Shown here in pieces: positions 1 through 49,432 of a DNA stretch of 53,093 nt. A program made the translations under genes and the position numbers. The stretch covers positions 1-53,093 of the IMG/VR virus record IMGVR_UViG_3300047444_000359, one strand, 5' to 3'. Within the stretch, counting starts at the first letter, position 1. The number at the start of each line of letters is the position of its first letter. Source of the DNA: a virus. The notes below the pieces were generated by a model. That model saw only the letters and a list, made by a program, of their open reading frames with translations, was not told the origin of the DNA and made no database searches.

Positions 1-66
1 AGCCCTGTTGGGCTAACAAGCCTCATAAACTTGACACGGTTGGTTAGATTCCAACACCCGCTACCA
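1..66 (+). tRNA. tRNA-Met(CAT), 5' end outside window
   Basis: The D-arm, a CTCATAA anticodon loop, a T-arm with GTTGG/CCAAC, the 3' acceptor strand ACCCGCT, discriminator A and encoded CCA at 64-66 are present. The 5' acceptor strand lies before the window. One of two CAT tRNAs here, so it could be initiator, elongator, or a lysidine-modified Ile tRNA; the sequence alone does not decide. Confidence 0.85.
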
Positions 67-72
67 ATTTAA

Positions 73-147
73 CGCTGCGAAGCCGAGTGGCTCGGCGTCG
101 GCCTCATAAACCGATCTAGCTTGGTTCGATTCCAAGCGCAGCGACCA
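73..147 (+). tRNA. tRNA-Met(CAT)
   Basis: The acceptor pairs CGCTGCG with CGCAGCG, followed by A and encoded CCA. The D-stem is GCCG/CGGC, the anticodon loop CTCATAA and the T-loop TTCGATT. The body differs from the other CAT tRNA immediately upstream, so the two probably have different roles (Met versus fMet or Ile). Confidence 0.93.
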
Positions 148-159
148 ATTGAGGTAAAA

Positions 160-417
160 ATGCACTACTATCTAGCAAATGATTTCACGGTTGTAAAACA
201 GCTTGACAACGGTGAGAAGATAGAGTATACTTTTACCAGTCACGCACAGGCGAGACAGTTTGTTGAAGTCAATGCGGGGGTTAAGCCTCCGAAGAAACAT
301 CTACCTGTAAAACAGGGTCAGAACAGACGCGCAAACTCTACACCGATTGCTCCGCGTACAGCAGAGCAGGTTAAGTTAAGAGCCGAAGCGCTGAAGCAGT
401 TCAAAGGTTTAGTTTAA
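160..417 (+). CDS. small hypothetical protein between tRNA genes
   Basis: 85 residues, no family recognised. The N-terminal half is mixed and soluble (MHYYLANDFTVVKQLDNGEK); the C-terminal half is rich in Lys, Arg and Pro and may bind nucleic acid. The start at 160 is chosen because GAGG lies 5 bases upstream; an earlier in-frame start would fall inside the preceding tRNA. The stop codon ends only two bases before the next tRNA (420), so messenger and tRNAs share one transcript. Function unknown. Confidence 0.7.
   Translation: MHYYLANDFTVVKQLDNGEKIEYTFTSHAQARQFVEVNAGVKPPKKHLPVKQGQNRRANSTPIAPRTAEQVKLRAEALKQFKGLV
203..231 (+). promoter_or_regulatory. candidate sigma70 promoter inside the first CDS
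   Basis: TTGACA at 203-208 and TATACT at 226-231 are separated by exactly 17 bases. The match to consensus is 11 of 12, and the site points into the tRNA/RNase P RNA region. It overlaps codons for LDNGEKIEYT, so coincidence is possible. Confidence 0.4.
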
Positions 418-419
418 AT

Positions 420-493
420 GCGGCTTTAGTATAGTGGTTGTACGAGACCTTGCCAAGGTTTAAGTACGGGTCCGATTCCCGTAAGCCGCTCCA
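420..493 (+). tRNA. tRNA-Gly(GCC)
   Basis: The acceptor GCGGCTT/AAGCCGC is followed by T and encoded CCA. The anticodon stem AGACC/GGTTT carries loop TTGCCAA. The T-arm ACGGG/CCCGT is standard. It begins two bases after the stop codon of the upstream CDS. Confidence 0.95.
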
Positions 494-508
494 GTATTGA
501 ATGTAGCC

Positions 509-707
509 TTCTAGGGCACCTAAGGTGCTTAACGCTGGCGACCGCTGGCCACAGCGACCGTGAGGTAATGTGGCAAGACATTGATGTTCGCCAGCAGTAG
601 CGCGAGTAATTAACGCAGTCTGCACTGGCCGGAGCCTAGCCCCGAGAGCATAAAACATTGCAGTTAGTGAAAAAGTCTGTGGGTGAAATCCCCGCAACAA
701 ATTTATT
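509..707 (+). ncRNA. structured spacer RNA A, function unknown
   Basis: No open frame with a ribosome site is convincing here, but the stretch is full of pairing. There is a hairpin GCACC/GGTGC (516-528). A closing stem GCTGGCGA/TCGCCAGC (534-541 with 588-595) encloses two hairpins, CGCTG/CAGCG (543-556) and AATGT/ACATT (567-582). A long arm pairs 620-627 with 656-663. A T-arm-like hairpin GTGGG-TGAAATC-CCCGC lies at 679-695. I could not fit a tRNA or tmRNA. It may be a tRNA-processing spacer or an independent RNA. Confidence 0.4.
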
Positions 708-781
708 GCAGACATGGTATATAGGTTGTGCCCCGGCCTTCCAAGTCGGAGAAACGAGTCCGAGTCTCGTTGTCTGCTCCA
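708..781 (+). tRNA. tRNA-Gly(TCC)
   Basis: The acceptor GCAGACA/TGTCTGC is followed by T and encoded CCA. The anticodon loop CTTCCAA gives TCC, and the T-loop is TCCGAGT. The ATG of the GGQ protein gene lies three bases after its CCA. Confidence 0.94.
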
Positions 782-784
782 ATT

Positions 785-1123
785 ATGAAACTACTGTTCT
801 CACTAACGAAGAAAGACTTTGAGATACAAACTTTCCGCTGTGGTGGTAAGGGCGGTCAGAATGTTAACAAAGTAGAGACCGGAGTTCGGATTATCCACAC
901 CGCATCCGGTGCTCGTGCCCAATGTTGCGAACAACGTCATCAGCATCAAAACAAGATGACTGCATTTAGGAAGCTAGTCGAGACAAAGGAATTCAAAGCA
1001 TGGCACAAGTTACGATGTGCTGAAGCACTTAACCATGCTAAGACAGTTGATAAGATTGTCGATGAGCAGATGAACGAAAAGAATTTGAAAGTAGAATTTA
1101 TAGGAGAGTCGTATAACGGCTAG
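785..1123 (+). CDS. RF1-type GGQ-domain protein (peptidyl-tRNA hydrolase/ribosome rescue-like)
   Basis: 112 residues forming a stand-alone release-factor catalytic domain. Residues 15-40 contain CGGKGGQNVNKVETGVRI, the GGQ motif that enters the peptidyl transferase centre and hydrolyses peptidyl-tRNA. A codon-recognition domain is absent, as in ArfB/YaeJ and related rescue factors, but the strongly basic ArfB tail is not evident. The ATG lies three bases after the CCA of tRNA-Gly(TCC) with no Shine-Dalgarno site, so the processed message would be almost leaderless. The last codons and the TAG stop (1121-1123) lie inside tRNA-Trp (1102-1176), so excising that tRNA destroys the end of the message. 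The domain call is firm; its biological role is inferred. Confidence 0.85.
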   Translation: MKLLFSLTKKDFEIQTFRCGGKGGQNVNKVETGVRIIHTASGARAQCCEQRHQHQNKMTAFRKLVETKEFKAWHKLRCAEALNHAKTVDKIVDEQMNEKNLKVEFIGESYNG

Positions 1124-1176
1124 TACTCTGGTCTCCAAAACCAGTTATGGGGGTTCGAGTCCCTCCTCTCCTGCCA
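1102..1176 (+). tRNA. tRNA-Trp(CCA)
   Basis: The acceptor AGGAGAG/CTCTCCT is followed by G and encoded CCA. The anticodon stem CTGGT/ACCAG carries loop CTCCAAA. The T-arm is GGGGG/TCCCT-like with loop TTCGAGT. Its first 22 bases overlap the 3' end of the GGQ protein gene. Confidence 0.95.
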
Positions 1177-1182
1177 ATTTAT

Positions 1183-1257
1183 GGTCCTGTCGTCTAGTGG
1201 AAAAGGCCCACGCCTTCTAAGCGTGAGACGAGTGTTCGACTCACTCCGGGACTACCA
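1183..1257 (+). tRNA. tRNA-Arg(TCT)
   Basis: Acceptor GGTCCTG/CGGGACT (with G-U pairs), discriminator A and encoded CCA. The anticodon stem CACGC/GCGTG carries loop CTTCTAA. The T-arm is GAGTG/CACTC with loop TTCGACT. Confidence 0.94.
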
Positions 1258-1259
1258 GT

Positions 1260-1347
1260 TTTGCAGCACTCAGAAATTCCCGAGAACGGGTTCGTCCTCT
1301 CATCGGGTTAGTACGGAGTGTAACCGATGTGAATGATCGGCTGCAAA
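1260..1347 (+). ncRNA. structured spacer RNA B (closing stem with two hairpins)
   Basis: An 8-bp closing stem TTTGCAGC/GCTGCAAA (1260-1267 with 1340-1347) encloses hairpin CCCG-AGAA-CGGG (1279-1290) and a longer hairpin pairing ATCGGGTTA (1302-1310) with TAACCGAT (1321-1328). The layout resembles spacers A and C. It fills the gap between two Arg tRNAs. Function unknown. Confidence 0.4.
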
Positions 1348-1351
1348 GTTT

Positions 1352-1428
1352 GTCGCTGTTCCTCGAATGGAACGAGGCTTTGTTTCCTAAACAAATGAGT
1401 GCAGGTTCGACTCCTGTCAGCGACTCCA
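1352..1428 (+). tRNA. tRNA-Arg(CCT)
   Basis: The acceptor GTCGCTG/CAGCGAC is followed by T and encoded CCA. The D-stem is CCTCG/CGAGG. The anticodon stem TTTGT/ACAAA carries loop TTCCTAA. The T-loop is TTCGACT. Confidence 0.95.
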
Positions 1429-1437
1429 GTTTTAAGT

Positions 1438-1836
1438 TTGGTGAACTAAACTGTCGCGGAAGACGGTGGCTCCCTCAAGCCTAACGGCGTCGTCAAGGCG
1501 TACCTTGAGCATCGTTTATACAGGGGGCGAATTCTTCTGAGGAAGTTCAGAACACATCTCAACACTACACCGTGGAAGTTGCGGACATGGTAACATGATG
1601 GGTAAGCCTCGGTGCTCTCAAGAGCATCTTAACTTAGTTAAGACGCCCTTGAAAGCCATTGGAGCCGGGATACTCCCTGTAGGTGCAACCTCAAGTAGGG
1701 ACAGAGCGCTTGTTGAGCGTGATGAAGTCCGGGTGAGGGCATAGACGAATGACAGTTATATTTTGTGCATCAAAGATAGCCTCATAAGCAATCTTCGACT
1801 CACAAAATAAACAGAATTCTGGCTATTGTTCACCGA
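1438..1836 (+). ncRNA. rnpB: RNase P RNA (catalytic subunit of RNase P)
   Basis: About 399 bases with the universal RNase P RNA core. P1 pairs 1438-1446 with 1828-1836. P2 pairs AACTGTC (1449-1455) with GACAGTT (1751-1757). P4 pairs AG-U-UCAGAA (1544-1552, conserved bulged U at 1546) with TTCTGGCT (1817-1824). CR-I reads GAGGAAGTTCAGAAC (1539-1553); CR-V contains ATAGACGAATGACAG (1741-1755) and ACAGAATTCTGGCTAT (1811-1826), close to the bacterial TAGATGAATGAC and ACAGAACCCGGCTTA blocks. GGTGCAACCTCAAGTAGGG resembles the J15 region. An extra helix pairs TATTTTGTG with CACAAAATA between P2 and P4, in the position of P19. The ends sit between tRNA-Arg(CCT) and tRNA-Ser(GCT). It would cleave 5' leaders of the surrounding tRNAs; no protein subunit gene is in the window. 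Confidence 0.92.
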
Positions 1837-1849
1837 TAAAATAATTTAC

Positions 1850-1939
1850 GGAAGGGTGGCGGAGAGGCTGATCGCGTCACTTTGCTAAAGTGAAAAACCC
1901 TAACAGGTTTCATGGGTTCAAATCCCATTCCTTCCTCCA
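1850..1939 (+). tRNA. tRNA-Ser(GCT)
   Basis: The acceptor GGAAGGG/TCCTTCC is followed by T and encoded CCA. The anticodon stem TCACT/AGTGA carries loop TTGCTAA. There is a class II long variable arm, and the T-arm is ATGGG/CCCAT. It begins 14 bases after the RNase P RNA P1 helix. Confidence 0.94.
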
Positions 1940-1975
1940 GTTTCTATATCTTGTCAAGTATTTTTGGGAGAATGC

Positions 1976-2983
1976 ATGGGCGTGCCTACTAAAGCATCAC
2001 AGAATGTGTGGAAAACAGAGGGCGGCCAAGATTTTATCCAATTTGTATCTCAGACAGGAACTGTGGAATCTTGGATAGATTCAACCGGAACAGGGCAAGG
2101 TAATCTAGCTGGTGGTGGCATAACCGGCACTATCGCTGCCGGACAGATCGCTGTTGGGTCCGGAGTTAATACAATTGGCGGAAGCGCGAGTTTGACTTTT
2201 AGCGCTGGGTTTTTAGAAGCAGCGGCAACAGCTGGAATAGACATTACGGATGCCAGTTCTTCAGGAGTGACTATTTCTGAGACAAGCACCGGAAAGGTTT
2301 TTATCCGTGCAGACGCTCCTAGTCAGGGCATATCGCTTGAGAACGATAGTCTTTCAGCAGGGATTACGCTTCTTGATTTGAGTACTTCGGGTGGTGGTGG
2401 GGGAGGAATATTCATCAACCAAACCGGAGGCGCTGGAATCACAATCAGTGGTAGCGGCACAGGGTCGCTGATCGAGATAGAGAACACAGGTAACGGCGGA
2501 ACATTTATTGATGACTCAGGTGGCGGCGGAGTGGGTATTGATGCTCACGGTCATCTACTAGCTTTGAATGGTACAGCGGGCGGCACACTTTCCATAGGTG
2601 GAACCTCCGGAGTAACCGCAGGATCGTTTTCAACTGTATCGGCTATTCAGTCCAAGCAAGGAATTATTATTGCTTTGACCGGAACATCTGACGAGAGACT
2701 AAAGACCGACATTGTTCCCTTTGTTCGCGGTTTAGACTCTATCAACAAGATTAGTCCGAAGCTTTATAAGTGGAACGAAGAAGGACAGAAGAGAACAGGA
2801 TTCACCGCTGAACAAGAATTTGCGGGGTTTATTGCGCAAGATGTTCAGCAAGCAATACCGGAAGCAATCGGGCAAGAGGGTGATTATCTGTCACTGGATA
2901 CCCGACCGATAATTGCAGCGCTGGTAAACTCGGTAAAAGAGTTGACAGAAAGAATTAAGGTTTTGGAAAGCAGCCAGAAATAA
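1976..2983 (+). CDS. tail fibre/spike protein with C-terminal S74 chaperone domain
   Basis: 335 residues. The N-terminus (MGVPTKASQNVW, then VESWIDSTGTGQG) resembles that of the fibre at 29003 and probably attaches to the virion. The middle is Gly/Thr/Ser-rich repeat sequence typical of trimeric beta-helical fibres. Residues from about 236 form a peptidase S74 intramolecular chaperone: TSDERLKTDI with the expected cleavage serine at S238, then PKLYKWNEE, FAGFIAQDVQQAIPEA and a terminal coiled coil. S74 domains fold the fibre trimer and then cut themselves off. ATG 1976 is preceded by GGGAG at a spacing of 5; an upstream TTG is less likely. It is isolated inside the tRNA cluster, far from the other fibres. 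Confidence 0.88.
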   Translation: MGVPTKASQNVWKTEGGQDFIQFVSQTGTVESWIDSTGTGQGNLAGGGITGTIAAGQIAVGSGVNTIGGSASLTFSAGFLEAAATAGIDITDASSSGVTISETSTGKVFIRADAPSQGISLENDSLSAGITLLDLSTSGGGGGGIFINQTGGAGITISGSGTGSLIEIENTGNGGTFIDDSGGGGVGIDAHGHLLALNGTAGGTLSIGGTSGVTAGSFSTVSAIQSKQGIIIALTGTSDERLKTDIVPFVRGLDSINKISPKLYKWNEEGQKRTGFTAEQEFAGFIAQDVQQAIPEAIGQEGDYLSLDTRPIIAALVNSVKELTERIKVLESSQK

Positions 2984-3016
2984 GGTTCCACAAATATCGA
3001 TACCTGTCGAAAGACG

Positions 3017-3124
3017 CGAGAGCCTTAAATAGGTAGACACTTAGCGAGCACCCAACCGGGGCGTTGACCTAAGTGGACCTTGCAGCGAAAGCGACATGGA
3101 GTCTTAGCAAGGGGCTCTCGTCCA
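3017..3124 (+). ncRNA. structured spacer RNA C with TCCA end
   Basis: An 8-bp closing stem CGAGAGCC/GGCTCTCG (3017-3024 with 3113-3120) encloses two arms: CACTTAG/CTAAGTG (3038-3044 with 3069-3075) and CCTTGC/GCAAGG (3078-3083 with 3107-3112), the latter containing GCGAAAGC. The 3' strand is followed directly by TCCA, as in the tRNAs here. It is not a tRNA by length or arms. Function unknown. Confidence 0.45.
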
Positions 3125-3135
3125 AATTTTATGAT

Positions 3136-3215
3136 ATATGTGCATAGCGAATCGTCGCATATTGTTATGTCCACGGGCAGAGGTTTGTACCTATGGACAT
3201 ACAACCCGCGCATAT
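3136..3215 (+). ncRNA. structured spacer RNA D (closing stem with two hairpins)
   Basis: ATATGTGC pairs with GCGCATAT (3136-3143 with 3208-3215). Inside are GCGA-ATCG-TCGC (3147-3158) and TATGTCC/GGACATA (3166-3172 with 3195-3201). The architecture matches spacers A-C. There is no coding signal in 2984-3257. Confidence 0.4.
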
Positions 3216-3257
3216 TTCGACCACTACTAGATAATGAGTTGTGGATGTGGTTTTAAC

Positions 3258-3344
3258 GGAGCGCAGTCGGCAATGGTGCCTCACAGTCTTGAAAACTGTA
3301 CCACGCGCAAGCGTGACGGAGTTCGATTCCCCGGCGCTCCTCCA
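3258..3344 (+). tRNA. tRNA-Ser(TGA)
   Basis: The acceptor GGAGCGC/GCGCTCC is followed by T and encoded CCA. The anticodon stem ACAGT/ACTGT carries loop CTTGAAA. The long variable arm (CACGC/GCGTG) is typical of class II tRNAs. Confidence 0.94.
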
Positions 3345-3351
3345 GTTCTAT

Positions 3352-3450
3352 ACCTGAGTCAGGGTCAAACCTGATTCGGGTGCCAATGACGTTGTTTGCC
3401 TCACCGCAGGCGGCGTCACCATCCGGTGTTTCAAGGTCGAACCTTGACAC
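3352..3450 (+). ncRNA. structured spacer RNA E (three consecutive hairpins)
   Basis: A 12-bp hairpin (3352-3363 with 3370-3381, including G-U pairs) is followed by TGACG/CGTCA (3387-3391 with 3414-3418) containing GCCT/AGGC, and then TCAAGG/CCTTGA (3431-3436 with 3442-3447). No frame with a ribosome site is present. Function unknown. Confidence 0.35.
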
Positions 3451-3458
3451 TGGACCAT

Positions 3459-3533
3459 GCGCGAGTAGCCAAGTGATAAGGCTGATGTCTGCAAAACATC
3501 TATACAGCGGTTTGATTCCGCTCTCGCGCTCCA
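3459..3533 (+). tRNA. tRNA-Cys(GCA)
   Basis: The acceptor GCGCGAG/CTCGCGC is followed by T and encoded CCA. The anticodon stem GATGT/ACATC carries loop CTGCAAA. The T-loop is TTTGATT. Confidence 0.94.
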
Positions 3534-3541
3534 ATTTCTAT

Positions 3542-3611
3542 GCACGATAGGCCGAACGAGGGATTCTAGAAGCCCTAGTGGTGGAGGTCATAACTCTAAC
3601 TTCGTGCTCCA
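3542..3611 (+). other. tRNA-like element or decayed tRNA with CCA
   Basis: 70 bases with an acceptor-like stem GCACGA/TCGTGC (3542-3547 with 3602-3607) followed by T and CCA, just like the neighbouring tRNAs. Inside are an AGGG/CCCT hairpin with TTCTAGA in its loop and a T-arm-like hairpin TGGAG-GTCATAA-CTCTA. No D-arm can be drawn and the T-loop lacks the usual TTCRANT. It is either a degenerate tRNA or a CCA-ended decoy. Confidence 0.35.
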
Positions 3612-3617
3612 GTTTAT

Positions 3618-3691
3618 TGCCTTGTCGTTCAATGGTAGGACGTGAGACTTTGAATCTCACTATACACGTTCGAGTCGTGTCGAGGCAACCA
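3618..3691 (+). tRNA. tRNA-Gln(TTG)
   Basis: The acceptor TGCCTTG/CGAGGCA is followed by A and encoded CCA. The anticodon stem TGAGA/TCTCA carries loop CTTTGAA. The T-arm is ACACG/CGTGT with loop TTCGAGT. Confidence 0.94.
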
Positions 3692-3736
3692 GTTCGATCT
3701 GTGAAATCGTTGGTCAGGTAACTAGGGAACAACAGC

Positions 3737-3798
3737 AAGGTGGTACTGCCTTAGTGAAAACGACCCCTTCGCCCTAGCGGGAACGAAATGGCCACCTT
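3737..3798 (+). ncRNA. structured spacer RNA F (closing stem)
   Basis: AAGGTGG pairs with CCACCTT (3737-3743 with 3792-3798) around two smaller foldable stretches, ACT/AGT and CCC/GGG. It lies between the two Gln tRNAs. Function unknown. Confidence 0.3.
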
Positions 3799-3810
3799 AC
3801 AAGTTTCTAT

Positions 3811-3884
3811 TGGGATGTCATACAATGGTAGTATGCTGCTCTCTGAAAGCAGTCATCTAGGTTCGAGTCCTAGCGCCCCAGCCA
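3811..3884 (+). tRNA. tRNA-Gln(CTG)
   Basis: Acceptor TGGGATG/CGCCCCA with one A-C mismatch and one G-U pair, then G and encoded CCA. The anticodon stem CTGCT/AGCAG carries loop CTCTGAA. The T-arm is CTAGG/CCTAG with loop TTCGAGT. Confidence 0.92.
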
Positions 3885-3893
3885 ATTTGTCGA

Positions 3894-3954
3894 GCAGAGG
3901 GTCACGATTTGTGAACGACAGTCTACGCTAGGTGCTCTGCCAAGGACGCGTAGA
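3894..3954 (+). promoter_or_regulatory. candidate H-type pseudoknot in a 5' leader
   Basis: GCAGAG (3894-3899) can pair with CTCTGC (3935-3940), which lies in the loop of stem TCTACGC/GCGTAGA (3922-3928 with 3948-3954). A hairpin TCAC/GTGA (3902-3914) lies between. The element ends 11 bases before the ATG of the membrane protein gene at 3966 and could control its translation. Confidence 0.4.
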
Positions 3955-3965
3955 AAGAGAACCGT

Positions 3966-4283
3966 ATGAAGTTTCCTTACTGGTATCTTCTAGCTGTCCC
4001 TACTGCTTTGTATTATTTAGGTTCTGCAATGAACTTGATTGTCATGGCGTTAAACCATGGTCAGATGCCTGTTCAAATCTCACCTGAGCTAGTCGCCCAG
4101 ATGGATTTTGACGCACGGCACACTATCATGACCGCCCAGACACATTTTAAGTTCTTTTGTGACTGGCTTAATCTTGGAGAAGGCATCGCGAGCCCCGGTG
4201 ATTTATTCATCTGGCTCGGCATGTCTTGCTCTAATATGTGCGCAGCTATATGGGCTGTGCTGATGATTAAAGACAGACAATAA
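3966..4283 (+). CDS. small membrane protein, unknown function
   Basis: 105 residues with two predicted membrane spans, about residues 5-30 (rich in Leu, Val, Tyr, Ala) and 79-101 (FIWLGMSCSNMCAAIWAVLM). Between them is a polar segment with His, Asp and Lys. The ATG follows AAGAGA with a spacing of about 6. It sits between tRNA-Gln(CTG) and tRNA-Pro. No family recognised; holin or superinfection-exclusion roles are possible but unproven. Confidence 0.7.
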   Translation: MKFPYWYLLAVPTALYYLGSAMNLIVMALNHGQMPVQISPELVAQMDFDARHTIMTAQTHFKFFCDWLNLGEGIASPGDLFIWLGMSCSNMCAAIWAVLMIKDRQ

Positions 4284-4289
4284 TTTTTA

Positions 4290-4363
4290 CGGGGACAAGT
4301 GTTATGGCAGCACGCACGCTTTGGGAGCGTGTCGTCCGAGTTCGATTCTCGGGTCCCCGACCA
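4290..4363 (+). tRNA. tRNA-Pro(TGG)
   Basis: The acceptor CGGGGAC/GTCCCCG is followed by A and encoded CCA. The anticodon stem CACGC/GCGTG carries loop TTTGGGA. The T-loop is TTCGATT. Confidence 0.94.
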
Positions 4364-4385
4364 TTTCCTTAGCAGGGTAGTATTT

Positions 4386-4459
4386 CGGGAATTCTGATAA
4401 TGGTAATCTACGCGCTTCGGATGCGTGAGACGGAAGTCCGATTCTTCCATTCCCGACCA
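4386..4459 (+). tRNA. tRNA-Arg(TCG)
   Basis: The acceptor CGGGAAT/ATTCCCG is followed by A and encoded CCA. The anticodon stem ACGCG/TGCGT carries loop CTTCGGA. Last tRNA of the cluster and the third Arg isoacceptor. Confidence 0.93.
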
Positions 4460-4523
4460 AAATTTAAGAAAGCAATAGCTTGCCTTCCCGTGATGGAAGG
4501 CATTTTTGTTTTCAGGAGAAAAG

Positions 4524-5801
4524 ATGGCTGCTACACTTAACGCTCTGATCGGTCAGTATGCAGGTTCTAGTTGGGATGCTGCGTTTCCTCAACCTCCGGG
4601 TGAGTCTCCGAATCTAGATTTGATTCATATTCGCGGGATCGGTAATCAGGTTCTAGCAGTTGTCAATCATGCCGGTGCGGTCAGCGGTGGCTCGACATCA
4701 GCGTTAGTTCTTACCTCAGTTTCAGTAGCATCATTGGTTCTTACCTCAGTTTCAGTAGCATCATTAGTTCTTACCTCAGTTTCAGTAGCAAGCCTAGTTC
4801 TCACTTCAGTAGTTGGTGCAACCGGAGTTTATCACGGTACCATTACTGGTGGTGCAGCCAACGCATTCGTAGGGAAAACAGTCATCATTGCTGGATTTGC
4901 CACCGGAGGAAACAACGGAAGCTTCGTTGTAACTGCGTCAGACGCCACAACAATTACAGTTGCGCCCACAACCCAAGTTGATGAAACTCATGCCGGAACC
5001 GCCGGAATTGTTGGCACAACTCTTGTGACCTACAATGGTACTATTACTGGCGGAGACACAAGTGCATTTGCTGGAAAGAGTGCAATCATTGCTGGGTTCG
5101 CCACAAGCGCAAACAACGGGACATTTACTCTGACAGATTCGTCAGCTACAACACTAGTCACAACCTTGACCGCGCAGGTTAACGAAACCCACGCTGGTAC
5201 TGCTGGAATCGTAGGAACAACTCTTGTTACCTACAACGGTACTATTACCGGTGGCGGCACAAATAACTTCGCCGGGAAGAACGCTCTTATTGCTGGATTC
5301 TCAACCAGCGCGAACAACGGCACATACGCTGTTGTGTCAAATACCACAACAACCATAGTGGCTGTATTGACCGCACAGGTTAATGAGACTCACGCCGGAA
5401 CTGCGGGAATTGTCGGCACAACTCTTGTCACCTACAACGGTACTATTACTGGTGGGGGTTCAAGTGCGTTAGCTGGCTCAACCGCTGTGTTCGCCGGATT
5501 TACTAACAGCACTAACAACACAACACAGGTAATCACATCATCAACCGCATCAACCATTGTTGTGCCTTTGATAGCTCAGGTGAACGAAACCCACGCTGGA
5601 ACAGCTGGAATCACACTGTCCTTTGTTGCGGGTGGAACACGCATCGGAACATACAAGACATTCTTGGACAACACTGCCACAATAGCAGCGCTGTTTGCTA
5701 ATGCATTTGCCAACCCATCACAGCAAGACATCCTTCAGATTGTATCTCCAGCCGGAGAAAACGTAGTCAACTACATTGACTATCAGGGTGTGTCTCACTA
5801 A
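4524..5801 (+). CDS. repeat-rich virion surface/fibre-like protein
   Basis: 425 residues. After about 60 N-terminal residues there is a run of the 10-residue repeat SVASLVLTSV, encoded by near-identical 30-bp DNA repeats (4711-4800). Four copies of a module of about 67 residues follow, with signatures GTITGG, AGFATxxNNGTF and QVNETHAGTAGIVGTTLVTY. The C-terminal 55 residues are unique. The module resembles small beta-sandwich repeats of phage structural proteins, and a single related copy occurs in the fibre at 29003. ATG 4524 follows AGGAGAAAAG; the longer in-frame TTG start is less likely. First gene of the virion module. Exact role unknown. Confidence 0.75.
   Translation: MAATLNALIGQYAGSSWDAAFPQPPGESPNLDLIHIRGIGNQVLAVVNHAGAVSGGSTSALVLTSVSVASLVLTSVSVASLVLTSVSVASLVLTSVVGATGVYHGTITGGAANAFVGKTVIIAGFATGGNNGSFVVTASDATTITVAPTTQVDETHAGTAGIVGTTLVTYNGTITGGDTSAFAGKSAIIAGFATSANNGTFTLTDSSATTLVTTLTAQVNETHAGTAGIVGTTLVTYNGTITGGGTNNFAGKNALIAGFSTSANNGTYAVVSNTTTTIVAVLTAQVNETHAGTAGIVGTTLVTYNGTITGGGSSALAGSTAVFAGFTNSTNNTTQVITSSTASTIVVPLIAQVNETHAGTAGITLSFVAGGTRIGTYKTFLDNTATIAALFANAFANPSQQDILQIVSPAGENVVNYIDYQGVSH
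4711..4800 (+). repeat. three tandem 30-bp repeats inside a CDS
   Basis: Units begin at 4711, 4741 and 4771, are nearly identical, and encode LTSVSVASLV. A degenerate fourth copy follows. The near identity suggests recent slippage-type expansion. Confidence 0.9.
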
Positions 5802-7068: not shown

Positions 7069-7284
7069 ATGGCGATGTCAAACGAAGAAGCAAAGACCAA
7101 GGCAGCTAAGAAAAAGGCTCCCATGGCTCATTCAGGTCAGGCAACAACATCAACAAACATTGACGAAGCATTGGGCGGAGCCACAAAGAAGAAGGCACCA
7201 ATGGCTCATTCAGGTCCTATGTCAACATCTCACAAGGATGAGGCATTGGGCGGCATGATGAAGAAAAAGCCGACAATGGTATAA
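7069..7284 (+). CDS. small basic repeat protein
   Basis: 71 residues built from two copies of KKKAPMAHSG separated by a T/S-rich stretch ending in DEALGG, and a third KKKPTM at the C-terminus. The high Lys content suggests DNA association or packaging with the virion. ACGGAG precedes the start. A hairpin terminator follows. Confidence 0.6.
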   Translation: MAMSNEEAKTKAAKKKAPMAHSGQATTSTNIDEALGGATKKKAPMAHSGPMSTSHKDEALGGMMKKKPTMV

Positions 7285-40459: not shown

Positions 40460-41302
40460 CTACTCTACTGATTTTAATATTGTGTCTATGCACGGTAGAA
40501 CAGTCAGGAACTCCGGGTCTCCATACGCGGACTGGACCCTGAATGAATCTGTCGTATAGACATGCTTGAAATACTTTTTAAGCGGGCTCAAGGACTTGCT
40601 AAACAGCCCGTGGGTCACATATAGATACAAATGTTTCTCTACCCCGGCACGTCTCAACGCTTCCGCGATGCCGATGAAGGTTCCGCCGCCATCACAGATA
40701 TCATCAACAATCAGAATGTTGTCCCCAAGGAACCCACGGATATCGGGGACCGAGAAGCCGGTCAATTTGCCAGTTTCGGGGTCTCGTAGTTTGCTCGCCT
40801 GTACTGCGGCGAATCCGTATCGCTCTGCACCCTTGTCCGGCAGAAGAATGTTGGTCGAACCGGGAATCAGGTTGATAGTCTGTTGAATCAGCGGCTTTGG
40901 GCTGACATCGCTGAAGTGCCGGATGTACTTCGCCGCCTCCGAACTGTGAGCGTCCAGAGTAACAATATCGACCCCGGCAAATGTATTTAACAGCTGTGCG
41001 AATACTTGCAGTCCATTACAGTCCCCAAGAGTGAACCTGCGGTCTGCCCGACCATACGGGAGATATGGCATAACAAGCAGGATGTCTGCGGACGTAGCCC
41101 CGCGAATAGCGTTCAGCAATTGAGCGACCGGTACAATGTCTCCGTCCGTGATTCTAGCGACAACTGTTACTGTCTCTACAATCGGATTCTTGATCTGGTC
41201 CGTGACCACGGTACCCAAGCGTACCTGTACTTCGCCGCCGGGATAACGAAACATGTCGAATGCGCCGAGTTTGTCTTCGGGGTATTTTATAATAAAATTC
41301 AT
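40460..41302 (-). CDS. prs: ribose-phosphate pyrophosphokinase (PRPP synthetase)
   Basis: 280 residues, converting ribose 5-phosphate and ATP into PRPP. PYGRADRRFTLGD resembles the family Arg-rich flap. VDIVTLDAHSSEA matches the DxH metal site. LLPDKGAERYGF and the PRPP loop ILIVDDICDGGGTF are clear. ATG 41302 (MNFIIKYPEDK) is chosen because it overlaps the TGA of the upstream peptide gene; a TTG at 41335 is less likely. With the NAMPT gene at 41615 it supplies the co-substrate for NAD salvage. Confidence 0.92.
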   Translation of the reverse strand: MNFIIKYPEDKLGAFDMFRYPGGEVQVRLGTVVTDQIKNPIVETVTVVARITDGDIVPVAQLLNAIRGATSADILLVMPYLPYGRADRRFTLGDCNGLQVFAQLLNTFAGVDIVTLDAHSSEAAKYIRHFSDVSPKPLIQQTINLIPGSTNILLPDKGAERYGFAAVQASKLRDPETGKLTGFSVPDIRGFLGDNILIVDDICDGGGTFIGIAEALRRAGVEKHLYLYVTHGLFSKSLSPLKKYFKHVYTTDSFRVQSAYGDPEFLTVLPCIDTILKSVE

Positions 41303-41382
41303 TGTCGGTGTCCGGTTCCGCCTATCGCTAGGCAAATCAAGATGACTAAAACTATCGCTAGTAGAATCACGCTAATGTTCAT
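41299..41382 (-). CDS. 27-residue membrane peptide
   Basis: MNISVILLAIVLVILICLAI followed by a short polar end: one membrane helix. It is joined by ATGA overlaps to both neighbours, so a chance frame is unlikely. It sits between the NAD-salvage genes; function unknown. Confidence 0.65.
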   Translation of the reverse strand: MNISVILLAIVLVILICLAIGGTGHRQ

Positions 41383-41618
41383 GGAATGACTTCTTTGATA
41401 GTAGACTTGATCTCGACCGCAGTCTTTTGAAACATCGCAACCCGGACAAGCTGGTAGATTCCGACTTCCTTAGGATGCCGGGTTGTGTCCACAGCCTTAT
41501 CTAGATCATCGAAGGCCACACTCAAATCTTGTGTCACCCCGCTACCAAGATAGTTAGTATGCGTGCTGACATAGATTCTTTCTGGAAATCCGTTCATGCA
41601 TGTGTCATCGTAATTCAT
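41379..41618 (-). CDS. hypothetical protein in the NAD-salvage operon
   Basis: 79 residues, mixed alpha/beta: FPERIYVSTHTNYLGSGVTQ and KEVGIYQLVRVAMFQKTAVE. Coupled upstream (ATGA with NAMPT) and downstream (ATGA with the membrane peptide). No family recognised. Confidence 0.65.
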   Translation of the reverse strand: MNYDDTCMNGFPERIYVSTHTNYLGSGVTQDLSVAFDDLDKAVDTTRHPKEVGIYQLVRVAMFQKTAVEIKSTIKEVIP

Positions 41619-43126
41619 GACCGCACCCGCTTCCTGATATCATCGAATTTGTGATCCACTAACAGGTTACCGTTAGAGTATACCTTAACAAAGTCACAAT
41701 TGTCAAGGTCTTTCGGTGACTTCATGTCCTCGACATAATAGTCCCCGTAAATTTTGTAAGGCTCGACTGACCCTTGTTCGTAATTGTAGCTAGCGCCCAT
41801 CCCTACCTGTTTGCGGTAGACCGCCGGGATTCCTTTCAAACTCTTCTTAACCCCATCATCGGTCTTGGGGTCTTTGAAGATAGGAATAACTTCTGTACCA
41901 TTACGTACAGCGGTTGCCTTCATCGCGTGACCGTAGGTATCTCGGGTCACATACTCATATGTATAGCTTCCGATACCAAACACCATATTGTACGGACTAA
42001 GCTTCAGTTCATCGATAATGCGGGTCAGAATCTGGTCTGCACGTTCGATTGTGATTGCATCTCCGTAGATTGCACCAGCCTTGTTAATCTTTGACAGCGC
42101 TGGATTGCCGCCGATGTAGTTTGTCCCTAGGACGTTCTCCAGCAATCTGAGAGTGCCTTGATTCGCTGGCGAGCCTGCCGGGGCATCTTTATCTCCGCAG
42201 ATGATCTTGACAGGGTCCCCGGAGTCTGGCCGGATGACAATCTTGCCATCTCGGGCAAGAATCTTATCACGCAGTTGCGGGATATACTCGGTCAGTACCT
42301 TCCACAAATCCCAAGTGTCCGAAACAACAGAAACAATTCCGGTCGGGTAGACATCCTCAATCAATCGGCGGAAAGTCTCTAGTTCGCCTTCTTTACCGCC
42401 TGAGCACATAACCGAGTGCTCTGTAGCAGGGACCGATCCGCCGCAGCTGTAGTCTGCTCCGTAGTAGTCATGAGCGGCTAGGATGGCTGGGACTGAGTCT
42501 GTGCCATTGAAGCTGGTCAAGTGGCCCATGCCGGACAGTATGACATCATCTAGTCCTGACATACCGCGCATTGAGAAGTCATGACCCTGCCAGTCGATGA
42601 AACCAAGATCGGTTTCGCCGGAACGTAACGCATGCTTGACAAATAATTTCCGGTACTGTTGAGCAGTTGTAGCTGAAGTGCTAGGCTTCCACAGATACGC
42701 AGACATCACTGACTCAATGTAGTTCGGGAGCCAATAGCAATTGTCATCTGTGTTAGTAACAACCACTGAAGGCACTCGAATAGGAACAGTTACACCCTCA
42801 GGCAACGCATAGATGTCAAGCGGGAGATATCCTAGATCATGGAGATACTTGATGTGATCGGTCTTCGGGTTGTCAACTCCTAGGGTCTTCTTGATTACTT
42901 CGCGGTATTCGGATTCAATTAATTCCCACGGACTACCGAAGAAATTTTTATCGAACTCTTCGATCAGAATCTTTTTGATGAAGTACTGGAGACCGAAGAA
43001 TACCACACTGTTGCGTCCGGTCCGTGAACTTCGGGCGGTCCAGTTCGACCAGACCTGTTTGGTCCCCGGCGCATATTGCGACACATGGCCAACCTTATAG
43101 AAGTCGATGTAGAAAATGGGATTCAT
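41615..43126 (-). CDS. nadV: nicotinamide phosphoribosyltransferase (NAMPT/NadV)
   Basis: 503 residues, close to the usual length. It joins nicotinamide and PRPP to give NMN. Visible family segments: FYKVGHVSQYAPGTKQVWSN at the start, GFIDWQGHDFSMRGMSGLDD, SVPATEHSVM, VSVVSDTWDLWKVLTE, KIVIRPDSGDPVKIICG and FGIGSYTYEYVTRDT, covering the catalytic His and phosphate-binding residues. Coupled by ATGA on both sides. No NMN adenylyltransferase is seen in the window, so the last step to NAD may use host enzyme or a gene elsewhere. Confidence 0.95.
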   Translation of the reverse strand: MNPIFYIDFYKVGHVSQYAPGTKQVWSNWTARSSRTGRNSVVFFGLQYFIKKILIEEFDKNFFGSPWELIESEYREVIKKTLGVDNPKTDHIKYLHDLGYLPLDIYALPEGVTVPIRVPSVVVTNTDDNCYWLPNYIESVMSAYLWKPSTSATTAQQYRKLFVKHALRSGETDLGFIDWQGHDFSMRGMSGLDDVILSGMGHLTSFNGTDSVPAILAAHDYYGADYSCGGSVPATEHSVMCSGGKEGELETFRRLIEDVYPTGIVSVVSDTWDLWKVLTEYIPQLRDKILARDGKIVIRPDSGDPVKIICGDKDAPAGSPANQGTLRLLENVLGTNYIGGNPALSKINKAGAIYGDAITIERADQILTRIIDELKLSPYNMVFGIGSYTYEYVTRDTYGHAMKATAVRNGTEVIPIFKDPKTDDGVKKSLKGIPAVYRKQVGMGASYNYEQGSVEPYKIYGDYYVEDMKSPKDLDNCDFVKVYSNGNLLVDHKFDDIRKRVRS

Positions 43127-45604: not shown

Positions 45605-45750
45605 ATTGTGCATACCCTGCGCTGATTTTCAAACACGCCTAAAATTGTTCTTTCTCCCGGTCTGGTTATTTCGCCCTTGTGGGCGGTCTCCCAATTACCC
45701 CAGCTGTGAAACAGGAAGTGCATCTTTACTAACTTGATTAGAAATTTCAT
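45550..45750 (-). CDS. small hypothetical protein with Cys pair
   Basis: 66 residues: MHFLFHSWGNWETAHKGEIT and RRVCTICGLVQMKNQKVYL. A similar short layout is common in phage small proteins. ATGA overlap with the BCS1-like gene. Unknown. Confidence 0.6.
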   Translation of the reverse strand: MKFLIKLVKMHFLFHSWGNWETAHKGEITRPGERTILGVFENQRRVCTICGLVQMKNQKVYLMDRS

Positions 45751-46952
45751 ATTTGCTCCATTCTGCGCTCCATTAGCGCTTGCTGCAATTCAGCCATAGA
45801 CATTTGCTTCTCCAAATACTCGTCTGGACACTGTTGGCCGGGAAAAAACCGGTCGTATAGCTGCTGCTTTTGTCCGGTAGTAGCATACGTGATATGAAAC
45901 TGCATGTCAACTCGGCCCGGACGAACCAGCGCAGGGTCCAACTTTTCCTTGTGATTCGTGGTCAAGACAAACACAGCGCCAGACGGACTGAGCACACCGT
46001 CAATCACATTCAGCAGTCCTGATAAAGTAACTCCTCTTAGCTTAGGGTTAGAGTCCACGTCTTTAGAGTCCCGATCTTTACTAGCGTTGACTGTATCGAT
46101 ATCCTCCATAACAAGAAAAGAATTTTCTGCAACTGTGCTGATAGCCTCGCGCAAGGTAGCGTCTGTCATATCAGATAGCTTAATGACATAGACATTTGAC
46201 TTAAAGTGACTAGACAACCCTGTCACCAAACTTGTCTTGCCGGTACCCGGAGGCCCATGAAACAAGTATCCCTTGCGATACGGGATGCCCATGTCTCCGT
46301 ACCACTTTCGGTTTGTGCGGAAGTGCTCAATATCCTTAACAAGTTTTTGCTTATCAGAGTACGGTAAAATAACCGAGTCGAGTGTTCTAGGAACATAACC
46401 ATGCACCATCGACCACTCACCGTATGAGCCCCACGCATGTAGCTCCGGTTTCTTCTCTTCTTCTTTGACAAACTCATTCCTAATATCCAACATCAAACTG
46501 CGAAACAAATTCTGCTTGCGTCCGATGGTGGTCATGGTCAGAGACTCGGACCGCCTGCCCATCCAATTTTCTTTCGCGGCTTTTTCTTCAGTCCTAGAGA
46601 TACGAATAATTATCGGTCTCCATTTGTACCATATCCAATGCTTTCCCGGTGCCGGGATTAGCGCGTAGGTCTCCGGACCGCGATTCATGACATCAAGATG
46701 GCGGGTCCGCTTAGTTGAGTTGCGGGTCTCCAACCATACCTTGGTCCAGTAGTATGCTCTCTGGTCATCTGTGACCGCAATAGACACTGTAGTCTGGTGG
46801 ACAATCCATGCCCAAATTTTGATCGGAATCTTCCGTAGACTCGCTCCGATTGCTCCGATGGCCATGAGCAACATGCCGCCGGACGCAAACTGGTTCGGGT
46901 TGTGGAGAAAAGTATTTATCGTGGTTTGAATAAGTTGTCTGATAGTGTCCAT
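45747..46952 (-). CDS. BCS1-like AAA+ ATPase
   Basis: 401 residues. Residues 25-55 form a membrane-helix region. Residues 55-190 match the BCS1 N-terminal domain (WTKVWLETRNSTKRTRHLDV, ESLTMTTIGR). The AAA module has GIPYRKGYLFHGPPGTGKTS (Walker A), SFLVMEDIDTVNAS (Walker B), VFVLTTNHKEKLDPALVRPG and RVDMQFHI (sensor 1, Arg finger). BCS1 proteins translocate or remodel folded proteins at membranes; the phage role is unknown. Start 46952 overlaps the upstream TAA. Confidence 0.88.
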   Translation of the reverse strand: MDTIRQLIQTTINTFLHNPNQFASGGMLLMAIGAIGASLRKIPIKIWAWIVHQTTVSIAVTDDQRAYYWTKVWLETRNSTKRTRHLDVMNRGPETYALIPAPGKHWIWYKWRPIIIRISRTEEKAAKENWMGRRSESLTMTTIGRKQNLFRSLMLDIRNEFVKEEEKKPELHAWGSYGEWSMVHGYVPRTLDSVILPYSDKQKLVKDIEHFRTNRKWYGDMGIPYRKGYLFHGPPGTGKTSLVTGLSSHFKSNVYVIKLSDMTDATLREAISTVAENSFLVMEDIDTVNASKDRDSKDVDSNPKLRGVTLSGLLNVIDGVLSPSGAVFVLTTNHKEKLDPALVRPGRVDMQFHITYATTGQKQQLYDRFFPGQQCPDEYLEKQMSMAELQQALMERRMEQI

Positions 46953-47395
46953 TATAGCCACTCAGGTACTACACATGTTCTTCGAAAGAACCATCGGTCC
47001 GGGGACTGTTTGTCCGGGGTCCTGTGCTCGACCACAGTATTCCTTAAGGCCACAATATCTCCCGGCGCTGTTTGAATCTCAGTTCCGTCTGGTAGTTTAA
47101 TTTCGGTTCCCTCGCGGTTAGACCACACAACCATCGCTGTGTCTCCGGTACCGTCACGGTGCCAACGGTGTGAAGTTCCGTGTTCTCTTACCACTACGTG
47201 ATTATCAGGCGATCTCACTTCTGCCGCCTCGTCATAAATAGACCATGAAGAACTCGGCCATGCGCCGTAGTCCGGCATTCTTTTCATACCGAGACTATTT
47301 GTGAGCTCTAAAAGTTTTTCCCCAATTACCGCAGGGTCATATGTTTCTGGCATGTAATTTCCGATAATCATGACTCCCGGAGCTATCTGTTTCAT
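46952..47395 (-). CDS. putative 2OG-Fe(II) oxygenase-like protein
   Basis: 147 residues. HRWHRDGTGD supplies an HxD pair, and LRNTVVEHRTP supplies the distal His about 50 residues later, followed by Arg residues. This is the facial-triad layout of Fe(II)/2-oxoglutarate oxygenases. ATG 47395 is chosen with AAAGGA upstream and ATGA overlap with the HNH gene. Substrate unknown. Confidence 0.6.
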   Translation of the reverse strand: MKQIAPGVMIIGNYMPETYDPAVIGEKLLELTNSLGMKRMPDYGAWPSSSWSIYDEAAEVRSPDNHVVVREHGTSHRWHRDGTGDTAMVVWSNREGTEIKLPDGTEIQTAPGDIVALRNTVVEHRTPDKQSPDRWFFRRTCVVPEWL

Positions 47396-47733
47396 AGTAG
47401 GTGTCCTTTCCTGACACAAAATATTAGCACAGCGGCAACACAAAAGTCAACAACTAATTTCCATAAACTAGTATCTCCGGCAAATATTTTCCCCGGACTC
47501 ACGAGCAGTTTGTTTTTCCGGTACGCGTGGACTGCCCTAAATTCATCAAATGTCAGACAACCTTTCTCCATATTGCAACGATTGCAGCATCGAACAGTGT
47601 GACCGTGTAACTTCTTAACTCCGCCGCGCATGATCGGAGTTAGGTGGTCTCTGGTTTCATAGTTGGCCGGGAGCGGCTTCTTCTTGCCGCCCCTAGCGGT
47701 TGTCATCTGGATTCCACAGTAGTAGCAGTTCAC
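47392..47733 (-). CDS. HNH endonuclease-like protein
   Basis: 113 residues. CYYCG and CCNRCNMEKG provide the zinc-binding cysteines, and ETRDHLTPIMRGG the HNH catalytic His. The C-terminus carries a hydrophobic segment (WKLVVDFCVAAVLIFCV), unusual for this family and suggesting membrane contact. Coupled to both neighbours. Confidence 0.8.
   Translation of the reverse strand: MNCYYCGIQMTTARGGKKKPLPANYETRDHLTPIMRGGVKKLHGHTVRCCNRCNMEKGCLTFDEFRAVHAYRKNKLLVSPGKIFAGDTSLWKLVVDFCVAAVLIFCVRKGHLL
47421..47450 (-). promoter_or_regulatory. extended -10 promoter inside the HNH gene
   Basis: TTGACT (47445-47450), an 18-base spacer ending TGC, and TAATAT (47421-47426) give a promoter with extended -10. 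The transcript would begin with GTGTC-AGGAAAG-GACAC, a hairpin holding the ribosome site of the oxygenase-like gene. Confidence 0.5.
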
Positions 47734-48659
47734 AGTTTGAATCCTAGTCCGGCCTTCTCAACCCATTCCTTGCGGGACTGGATTGCACCTTGAACCTGAG
47801 TGTATTGTTCGGTCACATTGCCCGCCGCGTGTCCGGCCCAGAACTTGACTAGCGGGTCAGGAACTCCGGCTAGACGAAGATGGGTGATACGGAATCGCCG
47901 GAGAGTATGGAAGCCGCCGACAATGCCGTCCTTTTCGAGCGAGTCCCGGTAGCAGTTCTCGCAATCTGAAAATATTAGCTCCCCGCAACCGAGAGGCTGT
48001 GCGCCGTCTTTCGTGATGTTAATGAACGCATTGAGCGCACTGTTCAAATCGGCTGACAAATCCACTTCCCGAACTCCAGCCTCAGTTTTGACCGGGGCTA
48101 GTCCGTTCCGGGTCATCTGCTGCCTGATTACCAGCTTAGACTCGGTAGGAAGATAGCTAGAACTAACACTGTCGTCAACCCGAGCTACGATCAAAGCCCT
48201 TGCCTCATTGATACGGAGCCCTGTGCCAGCCAACAGAGCGTACAATGCCTTCCGCTCCGGGGTAGCCTTGGATAATGCGTCCTGTAGGCTCTGGACGCTT
48301 ACAACAGCCTTATTATCGTTGCTGACAGACGGAGCATCGATAACTTCAGTGTTCCACTCGTACGGGAACAACTGGTCCCCATTTGGGGTTAATGCACTCT
48401 TTCGTATCTTCTTGATAACAACCACGTTAAGGGCGATTGTACGGGCCGAATAGCCCTGATCGGATAGTTTCTGGACAACCTCACTAACTACTTTGTTTCC
48501 AACATCTTGGAGATAAAGGTTGCCAATCAGTTTCTTAAGGTTGACAATAGTGGTGTTGTAGGTTCGCACCGACGCTGGACGGATGGGATTGCGCTTCCGG
48601 GACTGGCTGTCGGCCAAGAACTTGTCGGCCTGTTGGCTGAATGTGATCTTGGATTTCAT
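47730..48659 (-). CDS. int: tyrosine recombinase/integrase
   Basis: 309 residues. N-terminal SAM-like DNA-binding domain (residues 5-90), then the catalytic domain: TGLRINEARAL with the first Arg, a Lys in the beta-hairpin, HTLRRFRITHL with His-x-x-Arg, WAGHAAGNVTEQYT with the second His and the Tyr nucleophile. All key residues are present, so it is probably active in integration, resolution or inversion. It lies in the middle of the early operon, not at a module edge. Coupled by ATGA to the upstream gene. Confidence 0.92.
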   Translation of the reverse strand: MKSKITFSQQADKFLADSQSRKRNPIRPASVRTYNTTIVNLKKLIGNLYLQDVGNKVVSEVVQKLSDQGYSARTIALNVVVIKKIRKSALTPNGDQLFPYEWNTEVIDAPSVSNDNKAVVSVQSLQDALSKATPERKALYALLAGTGLRINEARALIVARVDDSVSSSYLPTESKLVIRQQMTRNGLAPVKTEAGVREVDLSADLNSALNAFINITKDGAQPLGCGELIFSDCENCYRDSLEKDGIVGGFHTLRRFRITHLRLAGVPDPLVKFWAGHAAGNVTEQYTQVQGAIQSRKEWVEKAGLGFKL

Positions 48660-49271: not shown

Positions 49272-49432
49272 GACTGGTCCTGCCAACTTTCTTGCGGAGT
49301 CTTGTCGCCTATTTCTTTTCTGACAACCTTGAGGAGTCTTTCGACTTCCGCAATCTGAGAGTATAAGTCGAACTGACGACTGATTAGCTTGTCCCGGTAT
49401 TCGATCAGATTCTTTAAATAGACTTCACTCAT
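49268..49432 (-). CDS. small coiled-coil protein
   Basis: 54 residues, one long charged helix (LYSQIAEVERLLKVVRKEIG). GGTGGGAA precedes ATG 49432. It overlaps the previous gene by 8 bases. Unknown. Confidence 0.6.
   Translation of the reverse strand: MSEVYLKNLIEYRDKLISRQFDLYSQIAEVERLLKVVRKEIGDKTPQESWQDQS

What the first reader, a model, noticed from the sequence alone, without database searches (positions are those of the whole stretch)
785..1176. GGQ hydrolase message loses its stop codon when tRNA-Trp is excised
The frame runs 22 bases into tRNA-Trp. RNase P cleavage at 1101/1102 would leave a non-stop mRNA of 105 codons plus two bases, while 3' processing of tRNA-Gly(TCC) would leave an AUG only three bases from the 5' end. 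The encoded protein looks like a rescue factor that acts on non-stop ribosomes, so the arrangement could be self-regulating, by analogy with E. coli arfA, whose mRNA is made non-stop by RNase III.
Basis: partly seen in the sequence, partly recalled or inferred. Interest (0 to 1): 0.85.

Follow-up and report, generated by a model that had tools for sequence, protein, structure and literature searches.

The report
Phage release-factor gene between two tRNAs
A phage gene for a small ribosome-release enzyme is squeezed between two tRNA genes so tightly that cutting out the tRNAs should leave its message with no leader and no stop codon; the arrangement recurs in unrelated phages, but nothing yet shows that it is a regulatory switch rather than tight packing.

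Summary
ORF 785-1123 (112 aa, RF-1/GGQ domain) starts 3 nt after tRNA-Gly(TCC) and ends 22 nt inside tRNA-Trp(CCA). RNase P cleavage at 1101/1102 would leave 105 codons plus 2 nt. The arrangement is not unique. In other phages, short GGQ genes start 0-8 nt behind Leu, Asp, Trp, Ser, Thr, Lys, Ile or Pro tRNAs, usually without a Shine-Dalgarno site, and four other GGQ lineages also end inside the next tRNA (Thr, Glu, Arg, Ser). But 15 of 70 other ORFs in the same tRNA arrays do this too, and most GGQ homologues have ordinary stops. The family's natural C-terminus falls at the tRNA boundary; the last six codons and stop are tRNA-Trp sequence. Relatives of this phage have the same tRNA order but no GGQ gene. 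The best reading is a rescue-type GGQ hydrolase gene inserted into a tRNA array and using tRNA-Trp's stop, probably expressed from a tRNA-punctuated transcript. arfA-like self-regulation is possible but has no specific support, and the protein lacks the ArfB basic tail. A larger side finding: this phage lineage, and about 18 other viral contigs, carry an RNase P RNA inside their tRNA arrays.

The parts
708..781 (+). tRNA-Gly(TCC), CCA encoded; its 3' end lies 3 nt before the GGQ start codon
   Evidence: ARAGORN, Rfam RF00005 48.6 bits; orthologous tRNA in relatives G003/G004
782..784 (+). 3-nt leader (ATT) between tRNA-Gly and the ATG; no Shine-Dalgarno within 20 nt
   Evidence: sequence; SD scan
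785..1123 (+). GGQ (RF-1 domain) peptidyl-tRNA hydrolase-like ORF, 112 aa, stop TAG at 1121-1123
   Evidence: PF00472 E=6.9e-20; phrog_3122; AF2 model mean pLDDT 86.9 with RF1/RF2 GGQ-domain matches
785..1101 (+). part of the ORF left after RNase P cleavage: 105 codons + 2 nt, covers the whole conserved core
   Evidence: last nearly invariant residue E104
1102..1176 (+). tRNA-Trp(CCA); its first 22 nt encode the end of codon 106, codons 107-112 and the stop of the GGQ ORF
   Evidence: ARAGORN, Rfam 58.4 bits; orthologue in G003/G004 with the same TTTAT leader
203..231 (+). promoter-like site (TTGACA-17-TATACT), the only forward match in 1-5000
   Evidence: consensus scan, 6 found vs 4.9 expected over both strands: weak
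4481..4502 (+). terminator-like hairpin + T-run after the last tRNA of the array
   Evidence: weak, consensus scan
1437..1841 (+). RNase P RNA (class A-like) between tRNA-Arg(CCT) and tRNA-Ser(GCT); Rfam match 1511-1841, P1 5' strand read by comparison with relatives
   Evidence: RF00010 32.7 bits, E=9.8e-9, below the gathering score; relatives 102.6 and 72.7 bits

Best explanation
A short, tail-less GGQ hydrolase gene of a widespread phage family has been inserted between tRNA-Gly(TCC) and tRNA-Trp(CCA) of a phage tRNA array. [Shown] Its start lies 3 nt behind tRNA-Gly, its natural C-terminus coincides with the 5' end of tRNA-Trp, and it has no stop of its own, using the TAG in the D-loop region of tRNA-Trp. 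[Inferred] The array is transcribed as one RNA; maturation of the flanking tRNAs by RNase P (perhaps with the phage's own P RNA) and 3'-end nucleases releases a message without leader and, for the cleaved fraction, without stop, as in mitochondrial tRNA punctuation. [Inferred] The protein releases peptides from stalled ribosomes as part of the phage's translation-maintenance kit. Missing its own stop is tolerated because tRNA-Trp supplies one in uncut RNA and because the 105-codon remnant still encodes the full domain. Feedback through non-stop translation may follow from this layout, but there is no evidence that it was selected.
For: Coordinates. Empty-site comparison: relatives with a terminase 76-84% identical have tRNA-Gly(TCC)-tRNA-Trp-tRNA-Arg(TCT)-tRNA-Arg(CCT)-tRNA-Ser in the same order without GGQ (gaps of 7 and 127 nt), and the TTTAT leader and tRNA-Trp are orthologous. 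12 of 65 family members end exactly 2 residues after the conserved NLKxE motif, which is codon 106 here, the codon straddling the tRNA boundary. Recurrence: GGQ genes start within 10 nt of a tRNA in 9 of 12 array cases against 14 of 67 control ORFs (p=0.0005; 0.0012 without this window). tRNA-adjacent GGQ genes rarely have an SD-like site (2 of 11 against 46 of 75, p=0.009). Rescue context: permuted tmRNA next to GGQ in Tunturi_4; tmRNA, RtcB and Pth with GGQ in M. abscessus prophages. An ORF entering this tRNA-Trp without its own stop meets one by nt 22 in two of three frames.
Against: No transcript, processing or protein data. Transcript boundaries rest on weak consensus scans. The sets are small and biased: GGQ loci were gathered by similarity to this protein and to L005. 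Control ORFs were called mechanically and some may be spurious. The hydrolase activity is assumed from the GGQ motif and fold. The host is unknown, so leaderless translation cannot be judged.
Confidence: 0.62

Rival explanations
1. One reading: the overlap is a selected arfA-like switch. RNase P makes the message non-stop, host tmRNA tags and destroys the product while trans-translation is adequate, and active GGQ protein accumulates only when tmRNA is saturated; released GGQ protein then rescues its own ribosomes.
For: The geometry gives a non-stop message whose 105 codons hold the full conserved core. Four other GGQ lineages also end inside a downstream tRNA: L005 -27, L155 -15, L110 -10, L040 -1. 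Nominal excess over control ORFs, 5 of 9 vs 15 of 70, p=0.04. arfA precedent: RNase III cleavage makes a non-stop mRNA (PMC8012679).
Against: The excess is p=0.09 without the discovery case, 0.34 without it and L005, and 0.11 among ORFs ending within 20 nt of a tRNA. Sister prophages of L155 keep a stop 6 nt before the tRNA; most homologues have ordinary stops. The arfA feature of an unstable hydrophobic full-length tail is absent (tail IGESYNG). No ArfB-type sensor tail.
Confidence: 0.13
2. Pure packing with no processed message: translation occurs only from uncut polycistronic RNA or from an unrecognised promoter, runs into tRNA-Trp and stops at TAG; cleaved RNA is simply degraded.
For: Overlaps of ordinary ORFs with tRNAs are common in these arrays (15 of 70), including HNH-like, RNase H-like and phosphatase-like genes.
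Against: With the ATG 3 nt behind a folded tRNA and no SD, initiation on uncut RNA should be hindered (inference).
Confidence: 0.2
3. The GGQ reading frame is a non-functional insertion or a chance ORF.
For: It is absent from close relatives.
Against: Intact 112-aa frame, 41-62% identical to 53 aligned relatives, with the GGQ loop and other invariant positions kept; confident fold.
Confidence: 0.04

Closest known systems
Phage RF-1 domain peptide chain release factor family (phrog_3122; mycobacteriophage RF-1 genes, Tunturiibacter phages)
   Same: Short stand-alone GGQ domain of 105-135 aa, V-x-x-x-M-x-x-x-N-L-K-x-E C-terminal motif; often near tRNAs
   Different: Most members have their own stop, and many sit in ordinary operons
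ArfB/YaeJ and ICT1 ribosome rescue factors
   Same: Codon-independent stand-alone GGQ domain
   Different: No basic C-terminal tail and below the NCBIfam cut-off (34.2 vs 100 bits); ArfB needs its tail for ribosome binding and hydrolysis (PMC3950681)
PrfH (with RtcB)
   Same: Matches the PrfH profile (57 bits) and a relative has an RtcB neighbour in M. abscessus prophages
   Different: PrfH retains a codon-recognition domain (PMC6514570); this protein does not
E. coli arfA regulation
   Same: A rescue factor whose message would be made non-stop by an RNA-processing enzyme
   Different: RNase P/tRNA excision instead of RNase III; the product would itself be the hydrolase; no unstable full-length tail; regulation untested
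Mitochondrial tRNA punctuation
   Same: ORF bounded on both sides by tRNAs; excision leaves no leader and an incomplete 3' end
   Different: Poly(A) could not complete a stop here (AU + A gives AUA AAA); in L040, where the cut leaves UA, it could

Membership tests
RF-1/GGQ domain (PF00472) | Profile match over the curated cut-off with a GGQ loop | tested here: met
   71.6 vs 35 bits; GGKGGQ at residues 20-25
Phage short GGQ family (phrog_3122) | Stand-alone domain with the NLKxE C-terminal motif | tested here: met
   E=2.9e-22; N100 and E104 in 90% or more of 54 aligned sequences
ArfB/YaeJ | Basic C-terminal tail that enters the mRNA channel | tested here: not met
   Net charge of the last 25 residues -3; family median -2; requirement from PMC3950681
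ArfB/YaeJ | NCBIfam NF006718 cut-off | tested here: not met
   34.2 vs 100 bits, residues 5-39 only
ArfB/YaeJ | Peptidyl-tRNA hydrolysis on non-stop ribosomes | not testable with these tools
   needs a biochemical assay
PrfH | Codon-recognition domain and profile cut-off | tested here: not met
   57 vs 166.65 bits; 112 aa only
arfA-type self-regulation | Message made non-stop by a specific nuclease | tested here: inconclusive
   Predicted from ORF/tRNA coordinates; no RNA data
arfA-type self-regulation | Product level set by trans-translation | not testable with these tools
   needs expression in a tmRNA-deletion host
arfA-type self-regulation | Conserved loss of the stop among orthologues | tested here: not met
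   Five overlapping lineages (four besides this window); most homologues have ordinary stops, and sisters of L155 stop 6 nt before the tRNA
RNase P RNA class A (RF00010), window copy | Score over the gathering cut-off | tested here: not met
   32.7 vs 100 bits, E=9.8e-9; relatives 102.6 (met) and 72.7, other contigs 76-104

The most novel reading that the evidence does not exclude
Phages with large tRNA arrays express a dedicated ribosome-release enzyme by tRNA punctuation: leaderless and, in some lineages, non-stop messages are released by RNase P, in this lineage perhaps with a phage-encoded RNase P RNA made from the same array, so that tRNA maturation, trans-translation load and rescue-factor output are coupled in one self-limiting circuit.
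Probability: 0.12. Interest if true: 0.9.

Novelty: new variant of a known kind. Interest (0 to 1): 0.55.

Why it matters
If messages released by tRNA excision are really translated, phage tRNA arrays are also expression platforms for leaderless genes, and a rescue factor encoded by a possible rescue substrate would be an easily tested feedback loop. It also points to an unassigned role for a large phage GGQ family that lacks the known sensor tail, found next to tmRNA, RtcB and Pth. The accompanying RNase P RNA suggests that some phages bring their own pre-tRNA processing ribozyme.

Tried and rejected
(1) That the 3' overlap is specific to GGQ genes: control ORFs in the same arrays overlap too. 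(2) That the gene is an ArfB: no tail, low score. (3) That the overlap is conserved in the phage's own lineage: the close relatives lack the gene, and 17 contigs with RNase P-like RNA showed none (an empty answer there is weak). (4) A phage RNase P protein in the window: none found. (5) An independent + strand promoter just ahead of the gene: none in the scan, which is weak. (6) A special fold of the excised message: z=-0.67. (7) GenBank phages with a DNA match to the RNase P RNA: none at blastn sensitivity. (8) Literature on phage RNase P RNA or on tRNA-punctuated phage rescue genes: nothing found in the held library, which lacks most subscription papers.

Full report
OBSERVATION. Every coordinate of the finding holds. 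tRNA-Gly(TCC) spans 708-781, the ATG is at 785, the TAG at 1121-1123 and tRNA-Trp(CCA) spans 1102-1176. Cutting at 1101/1102 leaves 317 nt of ORF, i.e. 105 codons + 2 nt, and the excised piece would read AUUAUG...GAAUUUAU. The window is a linear IMG/VR virus record with a terminase large subunit and a portal protein.

PROTEIN. The 112-aa product matches PF00472 (71.6 bits) and phrog_3122, and an AlphaFold2 model (mean pLDDT 86.9) matches the GGQ domains of RF1/RF2, PrfH, mtRF-R, ICT1 and ArfB. It has no stop-codon-reading domain. It also lacks a basic C-terminal tail: the last 25 residues have net charge -3, family median -2. In E. coli YaeJ/ArfB the tail is needed for activity, and deleting 101-140 abolishes ribosome binding (PMC3950681). 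It therefore works, if at all, as a GGQ hydrolase with an unknown sensing mode and is not an ArfB. Similar genes occur in 261 GenBank phage records and in a large number of IMG/VR contigs.

RECURRENCE. In 86 clusters of phage GGQ proteins (a few of them fragments of full-length release factors), about 23 lie in tRNA-rich loci. Starts 0-8 nt behind a tRNA were seen after tRNA-Gly (window), Leu (L005, L162), Asp (L142 group, L155), Trp (L040), Ser (L151 group), Thr (L052, L085), Lys (L037), Ile (L070) and Pro (L099). These tRNA-adjacent genes seldom have an SD-like site (2 of 11 vs 46 of 75, p=0.009). Ends inside the next tRNA were seen in the window (-22), L005 (-27), L155 (-15), L110 (-10) and L040 (-1). 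The annotated M. abscessus prophage prophi86-1 shows the same packing for RF-1 and for unrelated small CDSs.

CONTROL. Taking the last ORF of at least 80 aa in each tRNA-tRNA gap of the same loci, 15 of 70 non-GGQ ORFs and 5 of 9 GGQ ORFs end inside the next tRNA (p=0.04); limited to ORFs ending within 20 nt of the tRNA, 15 of 42 and 5 of 7 (p=0.11). Without the discovery case p=0.09, and without L005 as well 0.34. Overlap is thus mainly a property of tRNA arrays. Adjacency to the upstream tRNA is stronger for GGQ (9 of 12 vs 14 of 67, p=0.0005; 0.0012 without the window). The sets are small, gathered by similarity to this gene, and the ORFs were called mechanically.

HOW THE OVERLAP AROSE. 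The nearest relatives found through the terminase (76-84% identical) have the same order tRNA-Gly(GCC)-Gly(TCC)-Trp-Arg(TCT)-Arg(CCT)-Ser but no GGQ gene; Gly(TCC) and Trp are 7 or 127 nt apart. tRNA-Trp and its TTTAT leader are orthologous. So the GGQ gene most likely came in between two existing tRNAs. 12 of 65 family members end two residues after the conserved NLKxE motif, which is codon 106 here, the codon straddling the tRNA boundary; L040 keeps that end, with its TAG overlapping the tRNA by 1 nt. The window gene lacks a stop there and uses the TAG inside tRNA-Trp. Residues 107-112 are tRNA sequence read as protein, outside the conserved core.

MECHANISM. Shown: geometry, recurrence, missing SD, complete core before the tRNA. 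Inferred: one array transcript (forward promoter-like site at 203-231, terminator-like hairpin at 4481-4502, both weak); excision of the two tRNAs; translation of a leaderless message. Leaderless translation is robust at least in mycobacteria (PMC4633059); the host here is unknown. With the message cut, ribosomes would stall with codon 105 in the P site and two bases beyond, a substrate for tmRNA or a release factor. That this makes a regulatory loop like arfA (PMC8012679) is possible, but no result here favours selection for it, and related prophages differ: L155 overlaps the tRNA while its sisters stop 6 nt before it.

ROLE. A ribosome-rescue role is supported only by company: a permuted tmRNA (79.2 bits) starts 5 nt after the GGQ stop in Tunturiibacter phage Tunturi_4, and M. 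abscessus prophages carry tmRNA, RtcB and peptidyl-tRNA hydrolase with it. PrfH-RtcB pairs are interpreted as responses to ribosome-targeting conflict (PMC6514570).

SIDE FINDING. Between tRNA-Arg(CCT) and tRNA-Ser(GCT) lies an RNase P RNA-like gene: 32.7 bits, E=9.8e-9, below the gathering score. Two relatives score 102.6 (above it) and 72.7. A 15-base signature found 89 viral stretches, about 18 of which have the flanking RNase P motifs; all seven tested score 76-104 bits among tRNAs. The Rfam matches cover the whole model; catalysis is untested, no RNase P protein gene was found in the window, and no DNA match was found among 50,697 GenBank phage records.

VERDICT. Observation confirmed; interpretation partly supported. 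New variant of a known kind (phage GGQ protein in a tRNA-punctuated setting); interest 0.55.

Noticed in passing
window 1437-1841 (+); L178, L179, L204, L207, L228, L231, L240, L253, L260: Phage-encoded RNase P RNA (RF00010-like) inside tRNA arrays, in the window and relatives and in about 18 other viral contigs; many share the signature GAGGAAGTTC...CCGTGGAAGTTGCGG. No RnpA gene found in the window; no blastn match in GenBank phages; no paper found in the held library. Deserves its own study.
   Followed up: partly
L030 4986-5747 (Tunturiibacter phage Tunturi_4, PP885687.1): The GGQ gene is directly followed by a permuted tmRNA (RF04321, 79.2 bits) that is not annotated in the record: two ribosome-rescue genes side by side in one phage.
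   Followed up: partly
L177 (prophi86-1) and L142/L147/L150: Several small CDSs begin exactly at the base after a tRNA (0-nt leader) and may overlap the next tRNA; in L142 a tmRNA and a GOLLD RNA lie in the same array.
   Followed up: partly
window 1258-1351 (+): Spacer between tRNA-Arg(TCT) and tRNA-Arg(CCT) folds into a compact closed junction (TTTGCAGC/GCTGCAAA stem, z=-2.3); possible small RNA.
   Followed up: no
window 494-707 (+); L181 (reverse complement) about 7152-7278: Long non-coding spacers between tRNAs; the one in the window has no unusual folding energy (z=-0.7); the one in relative G003 occupies the site of the GGQ gene and was not folded.
   Followed up: partly
window 45747-46961 (-): Phage protein with a BCS1 N-terminal domain plus AAA ATPase (PF08740 1.7e-21, PF00004 5.8e-20), an architecture best known from mitochondrial BCS1.
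   Followed up: no
window 47730-48659 (-), 49425-49859 (-), 41615-43126 (-), 40460-41335 (-): Tyrosine integrase-like gene (possibly temperate phage), a cyclic-phosphate-processing receiver-like domain, and a nicotinamide phosphoribosyltransferase with a PRPP synthetase-like neighbour (NAD salvage).
   Followed up: no
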